Assembly (NCBI GenBank): GCA_947631095.1
Contig: CANRJX010000002.1
Span: forward strand, 1 to 58,257
DNA length: 58,257 nucleotides
From: an uncultured Wohlfahrtiimonas sp.
GTDB lineage: Bacteria; Pseudomonadota; Gammaproteobacteria; Cardiobacteriales; Wohlfahrtiimonadaceae
Direction of reading: 5' to 3'
A program made the translations under genes and the position numbers. Each line of letters starts with the position of its first letter. Within the stretch, counting starts at the first letter, position 1. The notes under the pieces were generated by a model. The model saw nothing but the letters and a program-made list of their open reading frames with translations. It did not search any database and was not told where the DNA came from. Shown piece by piece: positions 8,376 through 50,286 of this stretch.

Positions 8376-8452
8376 AACAAATAACAAATAACAAATAACA
8401 AATAACAAATAACAAATAACAAATAACAAATAACAAATAACAAATAACAAAT
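8376..8452. repeat. 11 perfect tandem copies of the heptamer AACAAAT
   Basis: Counting base by base gives eleven uninterrupted AACAAAT units over 77 bp, running into an AT-rich imperfect tail (to about 8465). It lies in the 365-bp gap between the AraC gene and the LysE/ArgO gene. A heptamer is not a multiple of three, but no convincing gene spans the tract. Any length variation would therefore alter spacing in a non-coding or promoter region rather than a reading frame. Confidence 0.95.
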
Positions 8453-45467: not shown

Positions 45468-47009
45468 GTGTCTAAAAAGCGTGCATTATTAAGCGTGAGC
45501 GATAAAGCCGGAATCGTTGAGTTTGCAACATCATTGTCTGAATTAGGCTTTGAGCTTATTTCTACTGGCGGAACAAAAAAAGCGATTGCTGATGCAGGTA
45601 TTCCTGTTAAAGATATTTCGGAAATTACTGAGTTTCCTGAAATGATGGATGGTCGCGTTAAAACTTTACATCCTAAAGTTCACGGTGGTTTGTTGTCAAT
45701 TCGTGGCAATGATGAACATACAAAAGCAATGATCGAAAATGGTATTGAATACATTGATTTAGTGTGTGTGAATTTGTATCCATTCAAAGAAACTATTTCA
45801 AAACCTGGTGTGACTTACCAAGATGCAATTGAAAATATTGATATCGGTGGTCCTTCAATGTTACGTTCTGCTGCTAAAAACCATGCGTTTGTGACAGTTG
45901 TGACTGATCCTGCGGATTATTCAGTTGTGATCGAAGAGATCAAAGCGAATGGTGACACAACTTTAGATACACGTAAAAATTTAGCGTTGAAAGTATTCCA
46001 AACAACAGCAGCATACGATGCTTTGATTGCTGATTATTTTGCACGTACTTTGGGTGATGTCTTCCCAGAAAAATTGACCATCACATTTGAAAAACAACAG
46101 CCTTTACGTTACGGCGAAAACCCGCATCAAGAAGCTGCTTTCTACCGTACCCCTTTAGCAGAAAGTAATGCTTTGGCATACGCTAAGCAGTTGCATGGTA
46201 AAGAGTTGTCATACAACAACATTCAAGATGGCAATGCTGCTGTTAACATTATGTTGGAATACAGCGAGCCAGTTGTGGTTGCTGTTAAACACATGAACCC
46301 ATGTGGTGTTGGTACAGGTAAAGACTTATTTGAAGCTTGGACCAAGGCATTTGAAGCTGATCCTACTTCTATTTTTGGTGGCATTATTGCAACAAACCAA
46401 GTAGTTGATGCACAAACTGCTGAACAAATGGGTAAAATTTTCTTAGAAATTATCATTGCACCAGATTTCACAGAAGAAGCGCGCGCAATCTTGGAAGCTA
46501 AGAAAAATATTCGCTTGTTGGCAAATCCTGCAATTCAATCTGAATTTGATAATGCATATACAACAACTGCAATCAACGGTGGTTTATTAGTACAAACTAA
46601 AGATCGTGGCGAAATTAATTTCGACGATTTTGAAGTGGTTACAGAGCGTGCACCAACTGAAGAAGAGAAAGAAGCTTTAGTATTTGCATGGAAAGTTGTT
46701 AAGCATGTTAAATCTAATGCAATTGTTGTGGCTAAAGAAGGTCAAACATTAGGAATTGGCGCGGGTCAAATGAATCGTGTTGGCGCAGCTCGTATTGCTT
46801 TGGAGCAAGCAGGTGATCAAGTTCAAGGCAATGTGTTAGCATCAGATGCATTCTTCCCGATGGCAGATACTTTAGAAATTGCAGCAGAAGCAGGCATTAA
46901 AGCGATCATTCAACCAGGTGGATCTATTAAAGATCAAGACTCAATTGATGTTGCAAATAAATATGGCATCACAATGGTATTTACGAAAAAACGCCATTTC
47001 AAACACTAA
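45468..47009 (+). CDS. purH: Bifunctional AICAR formyltransferase / IMP cyclohydrolase
   Basis: 513 residues. The N-terminal MGS-like cyclohydrolase domain has [33 protein letters not shown] and [15 protein letters not shown]; the C-terminal formyltransferase domain has [14 protein letters not shown] and [10 protein letters not shown]. It performs the last two steps to IMP. It starts GTG. In the Bacillus-like order purD should follow, but here a nuclease gene and tdcB intervene. Confidence 0.95.
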
Positions 47010-47032
47010 TATTATTTAGTTAATACGGTCAC

Positions 47033-47082
47033 TGAGGAATAATTAGCATTTCACCTCAAGCAAAGGCGCTAATTATTCCTCA
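47033..47082. repeat. 15-bp perfect inverted repeat behind purH
   Basis: TGAGGAATAATTAGC (47033-47047) and its perfect complement GCTAATTATTCCTCA (47068-47082) flank a 20-nt loop. The stem can extend by CAC/GTG past a single bulged A. There is no T-run, so it is not a standard terminator. The right arm and loop belong to direct repeat 1; the left arm is unique to this side. Confidence 0.85.
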
Positions 47083-47092
47083 AGTGGCAGTG
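47048..47092 (+). repeat. 45-bp direct repeat, copy 1 (left of nuclease gene)
   Basis: Identical over 45 bp to 47781-47825, beginning ATTTCACCTCAAGCAAAGGC and ending CCTCAAGTGGCAGTG. Weaker similarity continues for about 35-40 bp (ATACAAAA..TATAATAAGAA), so the duplicated unit is about 80 bp. Confidence 0.95.
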
Positions 47093-47136
47093 ATGCAATA
47101 CAAAAAAATATAATAAGAAAATTTAAAAAAATAATT

Positions 47137-47781
47137 ATGAAAGATATTCCTAATTGGCGACAGTATGAATGGTTATTAACAAAAATATATCATGATCAAT
47201 ATAATGATTTAGAGATTAAGATATTGCATAACTATTCTATTCTAGGCAAATATTCAGAAATCGACCGTCAGGTTGATATTCTATTAAAAAATGTGGGTGT
47301 TGGTTATTTAACATTGGTAGAGTGTAAAAATAAATCTAGACCTATTGATGTTAAAGGTATAGAAGATTTTTTAGGCTTAGTAGATGATACAGCTGTTAAT
47401 AATGCGATTATTATTTCTTCAAGTGGTTTTAGTACTAGTGCAAAAAATAGAGTTAAGCATTTAAAAAATATTAAATTAGAAGAAATAGCTTGGATGGATG
47501 CATATAACTCTGTTATTTCAGCATCTCATTCTTACGGATCTATAACAGATATTTGTGGTTCTTGTAATGATGATCATCAAGTAGGAATGAATGTGCCAGG
47601 GCTATTATTATGGGATATTAGACATTATGAGCAGTTAGGAAAAGTCTATATGATAGGACTAGGTCTTTGTTTGAAATGTAAAATATATAACGTGTATTGC
47701 GATGTATGTGGAATTGTTACTCTTTTAAATAAAGAAGATCATTGTTGTGAGTTTATGAAATATGTATCAAATCAAATATAA
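47137..47781 (+). CDS. Mrr-like PD-(D/E)XK nuclease with C-terminal zinc-ribbon cysteines
   Basis: 214 residues. The N-terminal half looks like a restriction-endonuclease-like (Mrr_cat) domain: E41 and D43 in SEIDRQVDILL, D47, then E62-x-K64 in TLVECKNKSRPIDVKGIEDF, and IIISSSGFSTSAKNRV. The C-terminal half carries four Cys pairs: C140/C143 (CGSC), C178/C181 (CLKC), C188/C191 (CDVC) and C203/C204, suggesting zinc ribbons. No good ribosome binding site precedes ATG 47137, and base composition is more AT-rich than the pur genes. The gene is bracketed by 45-bp direct repeats and splits purH from purD. It is probably an acquired DNA-cleaving protein (restriction or selfish element); no modification or helicase partner is adjacent. 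Confidence 0.7.
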   Translation: MKDIPNWRQYEWLLTKIYHDQYNDLEIKILHNYSILGKYSEIDRQVDILLKNVGVGYLTLVECKNKSRPIDVKGIEDFLGLVDDTAVNNAIIISSSGFSTSAKNRVKHLKNIKLEEIAWMDAYNSVISASHSYGSITDICGSCNDDHQVGMNVPGLLLWDIRHYEQLGKVYMIGLGLCLKCKIYNVYCDVCGIVTLLNKEDHCCEFMKYVSNQI

Positions 47782-47825
47782 TTTCACCTCAAGCAAAGGC
47801 GCTAATTATTCCTCAAGTGGCAGTG
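47781..47825 (+). repeat. 45-bp direct repeat, copy 2 (right of nuclease gene)
   Basis: Perfect match to 47048-47092. It starts on the last base of the nuclease stop codon. The left hairpin arm seen before copy 1 is missing here, so copy 2 cannot form the same stem. Confidence 0.95.
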
Positions 47826-47952: not shown

Positions 47953-48930
47953 ATGAATCTAGCGATTCTACCTGTCACAATGCAGGATATTCGTGATGCC
48001 CAAAAGGTATTAGCAGGGCGCATTTATAATACAAGCATTTTACGAAGCAACTATTTAAGCGAAATTTGTAAAGGCGATATTTATATCAAATTTGAGAATA
48101 TGCAACGCACAGGTTCATTTAAAATTCGTGGTGCATTTAATAAATTAAGTTCATTAACAGAGGAAGAAGCTAAATGCGGAGTTGTGGCTTGCTCGGCAGG
48201 TAATCATGCACAAGGCGTCGCATTATCCGGTACTATGCTTGGCATTAAAACAAAAATTGTTATGCCTGAAAGTGCGCCAAAATCAAAAATAGCCGCAACG
48301 ATAGGTTATGGTGCCGAAGTTGTTTTATATGGTGCTAACTTTAATGACACATTACTGAAAGCTCAGGAAATTGTTGAGGAAGAAGGAAGAGTATTTATTC
48401 CGCCTTATGACGACATTAAAGTGATCGCTGGGCAGGGCACAATCGGCATCGAAATATTAGAAGAAATTTGGGATGTAGATAACGTTATTGTGCCAATTGG
48501 TGGTGGTGGCTTGATCTCTGGCATTGCTGTGGCGCTTAAATCATTTAATCCAAATATTAATATCATCGGCGTGCAAGCGGATAATGTTCATGGCATGGCG
48601 GCATCTATTGCTGAAAAAAAATTGGTATCTCATAGAGTTTCAGCCACCGTTGCAGATGGTTGTGATGTTGCAACGCCAGGGAAAATTACCTATGACATCG
48701 TTAAAGACTTGGTGACTAAAGTTGTGACAGTGAGCGAAGAAGATATTATCGCAAGTATGATTGCATTGGTTCAACGCAATAAAATCATCAGTGAAGGTGC
48801 GGGTGCTTTATCCACCGCTGCATTATTGAGTGGAAAAATAACAGAATACATCGAAGGGCAAAAAACAGTGGTGATTTTATCGGGTGGAAATATAGATTTA
48901 TCAAGATTGGCAGAAATATTGAAAGTGTAA
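47953..48930 (+). CDS. tdcB: Threonine dehydratase, catabolic (TdcB-like)
   Basis: 325 residues, fold-type II PLP enzyme. K57 in [10 protein letters not shown] is the PLP lysine, with [12 protein letters not shown] and the phosphate loop [10 protein letters not shown]. There is no C-terminal ACT domain, so it is the short catabolic form and not feedback-inhibited IlvA. It deaminates threonine (or serine) to 2-oxobutyrate (or pyruvate). It lies between the nuclease gene and purD with an AAGGAG site before the ATG. The 171-bp upstream gap contains repeat copy 2 and TATAAT (47843-47848). Confidence 0.9.
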
Positions 48931-49023: not shown

Positions 49024-50286
49024 ATGAAAATTTTAATTATTGGTAAAGGTGGACGTGAACATACTTTGGCTTGGAAAGTTAAGCAAAGTGCAAAAGTGTC
49101 TGAAGTATTTGTAGCGCCAGGTAATGTTGGCATGAAAGATGTTGCGCATCTTGTGAATATTTCTGAAACGAATGCAGAAGAGTTAGCGAATTGGGCTGAA
49201 GCCAATGAAATTGATTTAGTCATCGTAGGTCCTGAGTCAAGTTTAGTGGCTGGTGTTGCTGATCATATGAGTGGCAAAGGCATTAAGGTTTGGGGACCAC
49301 ATCAAAAGGCTGCTCAAATCGAAGGCAGTAAAGATTTCGCTAAAATTATTATGAATAAATATGATGTGCCAACGGCTGCGCATCAAACGTTTACAGATTT
49401 AGCAGAAGCAATTGAGTACATTGAAAAAGTTGGTGTGCCGATTGTGATTAAAGCAGACGGTCTTGCTGCTGGTAAAGGCGTTGTCTTGCCGCAAACGATG
49501 GAAGAAGCTAAAGCAACCGTTGTAGATATGTTGGAAGATAATCGCTTTGGAGATGCAGGTGCACGCATCGTAATTGAAGAGTTTTTAGAAGGTGATGAAT
49601 ATTCTTTAATGTGTTTTGTGCATGGCAATAAAGTTGTACCAATGGTTATGGCGCAAGATCATAAGCGTGCTTATGACAATGATGAAGGCCCTAATACAGG
49701 TGGAATGGGCGCTTATGCACCATGTTTTAAAGCAAGCAGTGATGAAGTTGCAATTGCAGTTAAAACAATTATGCAGCCAGTTGCAGATGGTTTAGTAAAA
49801 GAAGGCAAACCATTTACAGGTTTCTTATATGGCGGTTTAATCTTAACGAAAGAAGGTTTTAAAACGATTGAATTTAACGCTCGTTTTGGTGATCCTGAAG
49901 CAGAAGTGATATTGCCTTTATTAGAGAGTGATTTAGTTGATGTGATTCTAACCATGTTAACTGAAGATAAATTGCCAGAAGTTCAATGGAAAGATGAATA
50001 TTGCGTGGGCGTTGTTTTAGCATCTGAAGGCTATCCACAAGATCCTAAATTGGGTTATCCATTAAAAAATGTTGAAGTTGATGGTGTGACTAATATGATC
50101 TTTAATGCTGGTGTTGCTGAAAAAGATGGTCAATTGGTTTCTAATGGCGGTCGTATTTTAGTGGCAACAGGTTCTGCGAAAACTTTCAAAGAAGCAAAAG
50201 ACAATGCTTATGCATTGATGGATAAATTATCAACTGAAGGTACATTCTTCCGTAAAGATATCGGGCATCGTTTTAAAGAGAAATAA
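49024..50286 (+). CDS. purD: Phosphoribosylamine-glycine ligase
   Basis: 420 residues of ATP-grasp GAR synthetase. N-terminal IIGKGGREHTLAWK, KADGLAAGKGVVLP and GPNTGGMGAYAP are diagnostic. It makes GAR from phosphoribosylamine and glycine, so completes the set with purE-H though separated by the nuclease gene and tdcB. It is preceded by its own 93-bp AT-rich gap and followed one base later by the aspartate dehydrogenase gene. Confidence 0.95.
   Translation: MKILIIGKGGREHTLAWKVKQSAKVSEVFVAPGNVGMKDVAHLVNISETNAEELANWAEANEIDLVIVGPESSLVAGVADHMSGKGIKVWGPHQKAAQIEGSKDFAKIIMNKYDVPTAAHQTFTDLAEAIEYIEKVGVPIVIKADGLAAGKGVVLPQTMEEAKATVVDMLEDNRFGDAGARIVIEEFLEGDEYSLMCFVHGNKVVPMVMAQDHKRAYDNDEGPNTGGMGAYAPCFKASSDEVAIAVKTIMQPVADGLVKEGKPFTGFLYGGLILTKEGFKTIEFNARFGDPEAEVILPLLESDLVDVILTMLTEDKLPEVQWKDEYCVGVVLASEGYPQDPKLGYPLKNVEVDGVTNMIFNAGVAEKDGQLVSNGGRILVATGSAKTFKEAKDNAYALMDKLSTEGTFFRKDIGHRFKEK

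What the first reader, a model, noticed from the sequence alone, without database searches (positions are those of the whole stretch)
47033..47825. Mrr-like zinc-ribbon nuclease gene bracketed by 45-bp direct repeats, inserted in the purine operon
A PD-(D/E)XK-type gene with four C-terminal Cys pairs sits between purH and tdcB-purD. It is flanked by perfect 45-bp direct repeats (47048-47092, 47781-47825) whose weaker similarity runs on for about another 35 bp. The left copy is also part of a perfect 15-bp inverted repeat whose outer arm is missing on the right. No transposase is present. The geometry looks like insertion with duplication of a hairpin-bearing intergenic site, possibly by a nuclease that targets that site, or a defence gene captured by repeat recombination.
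Basis: partly seen in the sequence, partly recalled or inferred. Interest (0 to 1): 0.75.

Follow-up and report, generated by a model that had tools for sequence, protein, structure and literature searches.

The report
Nuclease gene inserted at purine-operon hairpin
A small, probably anti-phage DNA-cutting enzyme gene has been inserted exactly at a conserved hairpin just after the purine-synthesis gene purH, duplicating half of the hairpin as a phage-style integration would, although no integration enzyme lies beside it.

Summary
A 214-aa Mrr-type (PF04471) nuclease gene with four conserved C-terminal Cys pairs lies between perfect 45-bp direct repeats, 3' of purH. In the four same-genus genomes where purH was found, the gene is absent and exactly one hairpin follows purH (empty sites). 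The hairpin covaries (5 two-sided compensated pairs), is single-copy, is found in no other genus of the family, and matches no Rfam family. The left copy is a complete hairpin. The right copy is only its loop plus 3' arm: it starts at the first loop base and ends where conservation across the genus ends. This is the geometry of an island in the 3' part of a structured gene (intact target at one end, displaced 3' fragment at the other), shrunk to one gene. The only full-length relatives found (43-44% identity; Salinivibrio, Thalassotalea) are integron cassettes with ordinary attC sites, so the family is mobile cargo. The window has no attC, and the genus has no integron integrase. Best reading: a horizontally acquired solitary restriction-like nuclease integrated at the purH hairpin, with an absent or lost recombinase. 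Main rival: hairpin break and DNA capture with duplication. Nothing suggests that the nuclease targets the hairpin. Which enzyme made the insertion is unresolved.

The parts
45468..47009 (+). purH, upstream neighbour
   Evidence: ORF; 90-93% identical purH precedes the hairpin in four same-genus genomes
47026..47092 (+). complete hairpin with conserved loop CACCTCAAGCAAAGGCG, about 20 nt after the purH stop
   Evidence: z -5.9; five sequences, 5 pairs with two-sided compensation, 98.9% of cells paired; genus-specific and single-copy; no Rfam match
47033..47047 (+). left arm of the 15-bp inverted repeat, not duplicated
47048..47092 (+). left copy of the 45-bp direct repeat (loop plus 3' arm), attL-like
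47093..47136 (+). AT-rich leader between left repeat and ORF, weakly similar to the sequence after the right repeat
   Evidence: p 0.002
47137..47781 (+). Mrr-type PD-(D/E)XK nuclease gene, 214 aa, with C-terminal Cys-pair (zinc-ribbon-like) module
   Evidence: PF04471 E 1.7e-10; 43-44% full-length identity to two integron-cassette proteins; GC 0.285
47781..47825 (+). right copy of the 45-bp direct repeat (displaced 3' half of the hairpin), attR-like
   Evidence: no left arm, CM score 24 bits against 91.5 for the left copy
47953..48930 (+). tdcB-like gene downstream; tdcB-purD order shared with G002
49024..50286 (+). purD

Best explanation
A horizontally acquired solitary Mrr-type nuclease gene, probably a restriction-like anti-phage enzyme, was integrated into a conserved hairpin just 3' of purH. 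The incoming piece carried (or the event created) a copy of the hairpin's loop and 3' arm. The purH-side hairpin therefore stayed complete, and a displaced 45-bp 3' fragment lies at the far end, as when islands integrate into the 3' part of tRNA genes. No recombinase is encoded, so it was supplied in trans or has been lost; today the element is a fixed single-gene islet. Shown: the repeats, the empty sites, the covarying hairpin, the gene family, and integron-cassette relatives. Inferred: recombinase-type integration, defence role, zinc binding.
For: Empty site with one hairpin after purH in G001, G003, G004, G005. The repeat starts at the first loop base and stops at the last base conserved in all five hairpins, so the intact structure is rebuilt at the left junction and only a fragment remains at the right. 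The gene fills the interval (44 bp after the left repeat, stop codon ending on the first base of the right repeat). Low GC 0.285, GC3 0.167 against neighbours 0.36-0.40 and 0.24-0.30. Full-length relatives are mobile integron cassettes. att repeats of 29-69 bp, median 45 bp, and use of 3'-distal parts of tRNA genes are described for tyrosine-recombinase elements (PMC6563490). The ExK motif (E62-C63-K64) and D47 are invariant.
Against: No integrase at the locus; one 405-aa tyrosine integrase in the genome (L135) is unlinked and no hairpin copy was found near it. No second gene-plus-repeat unit was found in 18 family genomes, so site-specific integration rests on one event. Both copies carry this species' own stem arm, so the second copy came from this lineage, which a one-off duplication explains equally well. 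The AlphaFold model was poor (mean pLDDT 46).
Confidence: 0.45

Rival explanations
1. One-off DNA capture. The hairpin was nicked or broken just 5' of its loop (as SbcCD does), a foreign fragment was joined in during repair, and re-synthesis duplicated 45 bp of the hairpin.
For: The duplication begins exactly at the loop's 5' edge, and SbcCD cleaves hairpins 5' of the loop (PMC6265447). Both copies carry the species-specific stem arm. No recombinase is needed.
Against: The right boundary coinciding with the end of the conserved hairpin block, and the gene exactly filling the insert, would be coincidences. A stem of about 20 bp with a 20-nt loop is much smaller than palindromes known to be cut in vivo (own knowledge).
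Confidence: 0.28
2. Integron cassette inserted by an integron integrase at a secondary site, followed by loss of attC.
For: The only two full-length relatives found are genuine cassettes between attC sites; stop codon directly at the repeat.
Against: No TAACAA...GGCGTTA-type attC at either end; no integron integrase over the cut-off in six genus genomes; an attI x attC exchange would not give a 45-bp direct repeat.
Confidence: 0.06
3. Assembly artefact: two unrelated places sharing the 45-mer were joined in a 212-contig assembly.
For: Draft assembly, 81.5% complete, 4.4% contaminated; a 45-bp repeat sits at both joints.
Against: The flanks fit the genus: purH-hairpin on the left, and on the right tdcB-purD in the order found in G002. 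No other copy of the 45-mer exists in the assembly.
Confidence: 0.08
4. The nuclease recognises the hairpin and homes into it, as a homing-endonuclease gene does.
For: Nuclease gene bracketed by the two halves of a structured site.
Against: The hairpin is present without the gene in four genomes and the gene is present without the hairpin in Salinivibrio and Thalassotalea. The left junction leaves a complete hairpin, so the site would not be destroyed as homing requires. The gene is of restriction (Mrr) type.
Confidence: 0.04

Closest known systems
Integrative elements and satellites in 3' ends of tRNA or other structured RNA genes (tyrosine recombinase att sites)
   Same: Direct repeats of typical att length; target rebuilt at one end, 3' fragment displaced at the other; empty site in relatives; foreign cargo
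   Different: Target is a genus-specific hairpin after purH, not a tRNA; only one gene; no integrase; only one occurrence seen
Integron gene cassettes (Salinivibrio, Thalassotalea homologues)
   Same: Single promoter-poor ORF with a recombination-site-like sequence at its stop codon; the same protein family rides as a cassette there
   Different: No attC, no IntI in the genus; the repeat is 45 bp of hairpin
Mrr-type restriction endonucleases (PF04471)
   Same: Mrr_cat domain with D and ExK motif; solitary, no methyltransferase adjacent
   Different: No Mrr_N; short C-terminal module with four conserved Cys pairs
Defence hotspots between fixed core genes
   Same: The purH-purD interval holds different accessory genes in relatives, including an unrelated Mrr in G001 and SIR2 and HerA-like genes in G004
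   Different: Not surveyed beyond one genus

Membership tests
Mrr_cat nucleases (PF04471) | Match above Pfam gathering score | tested here: met
   41.4 bits against a cut-off of 21
Mrr_cat nucleases (PF04471) | PD-(D/E)XK catalytic residues | tested here: met
   D47 and E62-C63-K64 invariant in three homologues; activity itself not tested
Mrr_cat nucleases (PF04471) | Three-dimensional fold | tested here: inconclusive
   AlphaFold mean pLDDT 46
tRNA-type integrative element | Direct att repeats with target rebuilt at one end | tested here: met
tRNA-type integrative element | Empty site in relatives | tested here: met
tRNA-type integrative element | Integrase encoded in the element | tested here: not met
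   only one ORF between the repeats
tRNA-type integrative element | Excision to a circle | not testable with these tools
   needs reads or PCR
Integron cassette | attC site (RYYYAAC...GTTRRRY) at the 3' end | tested here: not met
   window sequence compared with attC sites in L017 and L018
Integron cassette | Integron integrase in the genome | tested here: not met
   TIGR02249: no hit over the cut-off in six genus genomes; the G000 assembly is 81.5% complete
Insertion sequence or transposon | Transposase and short target duplication | tested here: not met
   no transposase ORF; duplication is 45 bp
Rfam RNA family (hairpin) | Match to a known family | tested here: not met
   no match at E <= 1

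The most novel reading that the evidence does not exclude
The purH hairpin is a dedicated attachment site used by a so far undescribed class of single-gene, helper-dependent cassettes that carry defence genes and preserve the hairpin on insertion, as integrative satellites do with tRNA genes.
Probability: 0.2. Interest if true: 0.65.

Novelty: new variant of a known kind. Interest (0 to 1): 0.4.

Why it matters
It documents, with empty sites, a single defence-type gene landing precisely in a structured intergenic element and leaving it intact. It also links the same nuclease family to integron cassettes. If further strains show the same boundaries, this would be a minimal cassette system with a new target. 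The hairpin itself is an undescribed, covarying, genus-specific element after purH.

Tried and rejected
Dispersed-repeat explanation: no other copy of the 45-mer in its own genome or of the hairpin elsewhere in 18 family genomes. Known RNA: no Rfam match. Phage origin: no protein match in phages or viral contigs; the 16-mer loop hits in viral contigs share no flanks and look like chance. Plasmids: only partial Mrr matches and degenerate C-terminal remnants on Vibrio harveyi plasmids. Using sequence after the repeats to tell which copy is ancestral: undecided, the AT-rich flanks are uninformative. Intrinsic terminator on the + strand: no T-run after the hairpin. Structure prediction was too poor for a fold search. 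Promoter scan gave no more than chance.

Full report
Observation. The 45-bp direct repeat (47048-47092, 47781-47825) is perfect and unique in the window. In the whole 2.3-Mb assembly the 45-mer is found only at these two places. The left copy belongs to a hairpin (arms 47033-47047/47068-47082) with a folding z of -5.9; the right copy lacks the outer arm and does not fold. Between them is one ORF of 214 aa with a Pfam Mrr_cat match at E 1.7e-10. Its GC is 0.285 against 0.36-0.40 in neighbouring genes.

Empty sites. purH and its downstream sequence were compared in the same genus. G001, G003, G004 and G005 each have exactly one hairpin after purH and no nuclease gene; purH was not found in G002. 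Downstream genes differ: a 732-aa protein gene in G004 and a flavin amine oxidase in G001 (names from reading the translations). The hairpin therefore travels with purH, not with what follows. The tdcB-purD order on the right is shared with G002, where the contig ends near what reads like a transposase tail about 120 bp upstream of tdcB (my reading of the translation).

Hairpin. Across the four distinct sequences, five stem pairs change on both sides and stay paired, and 98.9% of cells pair, against 93.2% in column shuffles (2 of 500 shuffles reach it) and 38-48% when slid. The loop CCTCAAGCAAAGGCG is invariant. A covariance model finds it only after purH and only in this genus among 18 family genomes. 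Other genera of the family have other sequences after purH. No Rfam family matches. No T-run follows, so it is not a standard + strand terminator. Its function, as RNA or DNA, is unknown.

Boundaries. The repeat starts at the first loop base and ends at the last base conserved in all five hairpins (GGCAGTG). The left junction thus keeps a complete hairpin and the right junction has its 3' half. Both copies carry this species' own arm sequence, so the second copy was made from this lineage's hairpin or from a close relative's. A further 44 bp show weak similarity (p 0.002), which neither side's relatives resolve.

Gene family. A scan of about 85,000 genomes found two full-length relatives at 43-44% identity, in Salinivibrio and Thalassotalea; the scan needs exact short peptide matches, so its sensitivity is low. 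Both lie between attC sites of ordinary integron type (TAACAA...GGCGTTA); the Salinivibrio array also holds GNAT and CAP12/Pycsar-type TIR proteins. The D and ExK residues and four Cys pairs are invariant. Searches of 369 and 398 further genomes gave only Mrr-domain matches in other architectures. Vibrio harveyi plasmids carry unannotated remnants of the C-terminal module.

Mechanism. The gene is most simply a mobile restriction-like nuclease. For its insertion, the geometry fits integration into the 3' part of a structured element, with att-length repeats (29-69 bp, median 45 bp, in the crenarchaeal elements cited in PMC6563490). The alternative is capture at a break 5' of the hairpin loop, where SbcCD cuts (PMC6265447). 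The coincidence of both repeat ends with functional limits of the hairpin, and the gene filling the interval, favour the first; the missing integrase and the single occurrence keep the second open. Integron recombination is not supported: there is no attC, and no integron integrase in the genus over the cut-off. Homing by the nuclease is not supported.

Limits. The assembly is a draft (81.5% complete), so a join at the 45-mer cannot be excluded without reads. The structure model was poor. No activity is shown.

Noticed in passing
L055 14554-15453 (G001): A different Mrr (Mrr_N plus Mrr_cat, 299 aa) lies directly upstream of purD in a relative: the purH-purD interval may be a small defence hotspot.
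   Followed up: partly
L057 13455-17669 (G004): Downstream of tdcB in G004 are a SIR2-like gene, a HerA-like partial ORF and an IS21-type transposase pair (identified by reading the translations, not by a family search).
   Followed up: no
window 47026-47092; L013, L015, L016, L058: Genus-specific covarying hairpin with an invariant loop after purH; a candidate new structured element.
   Followed up: partly
L017 4406-10345: Salinivibrio integron array with neighbouring defence-type genes (CAP12/Pycsar TIR effector; an OLD-like ATPase by my reading) beside the Mrr-type cassette.
   Followed up: no
L124 4001-4174, L125 4001-4180: Unannotated remnants of the C-terminal Cys module on conjugative Vibrio harveyi plasmids.
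   Followed up: no
window 8376-8450: Tandem array of a 7-bp unit (AACAAAT), about ten copies.
   Followed up: no
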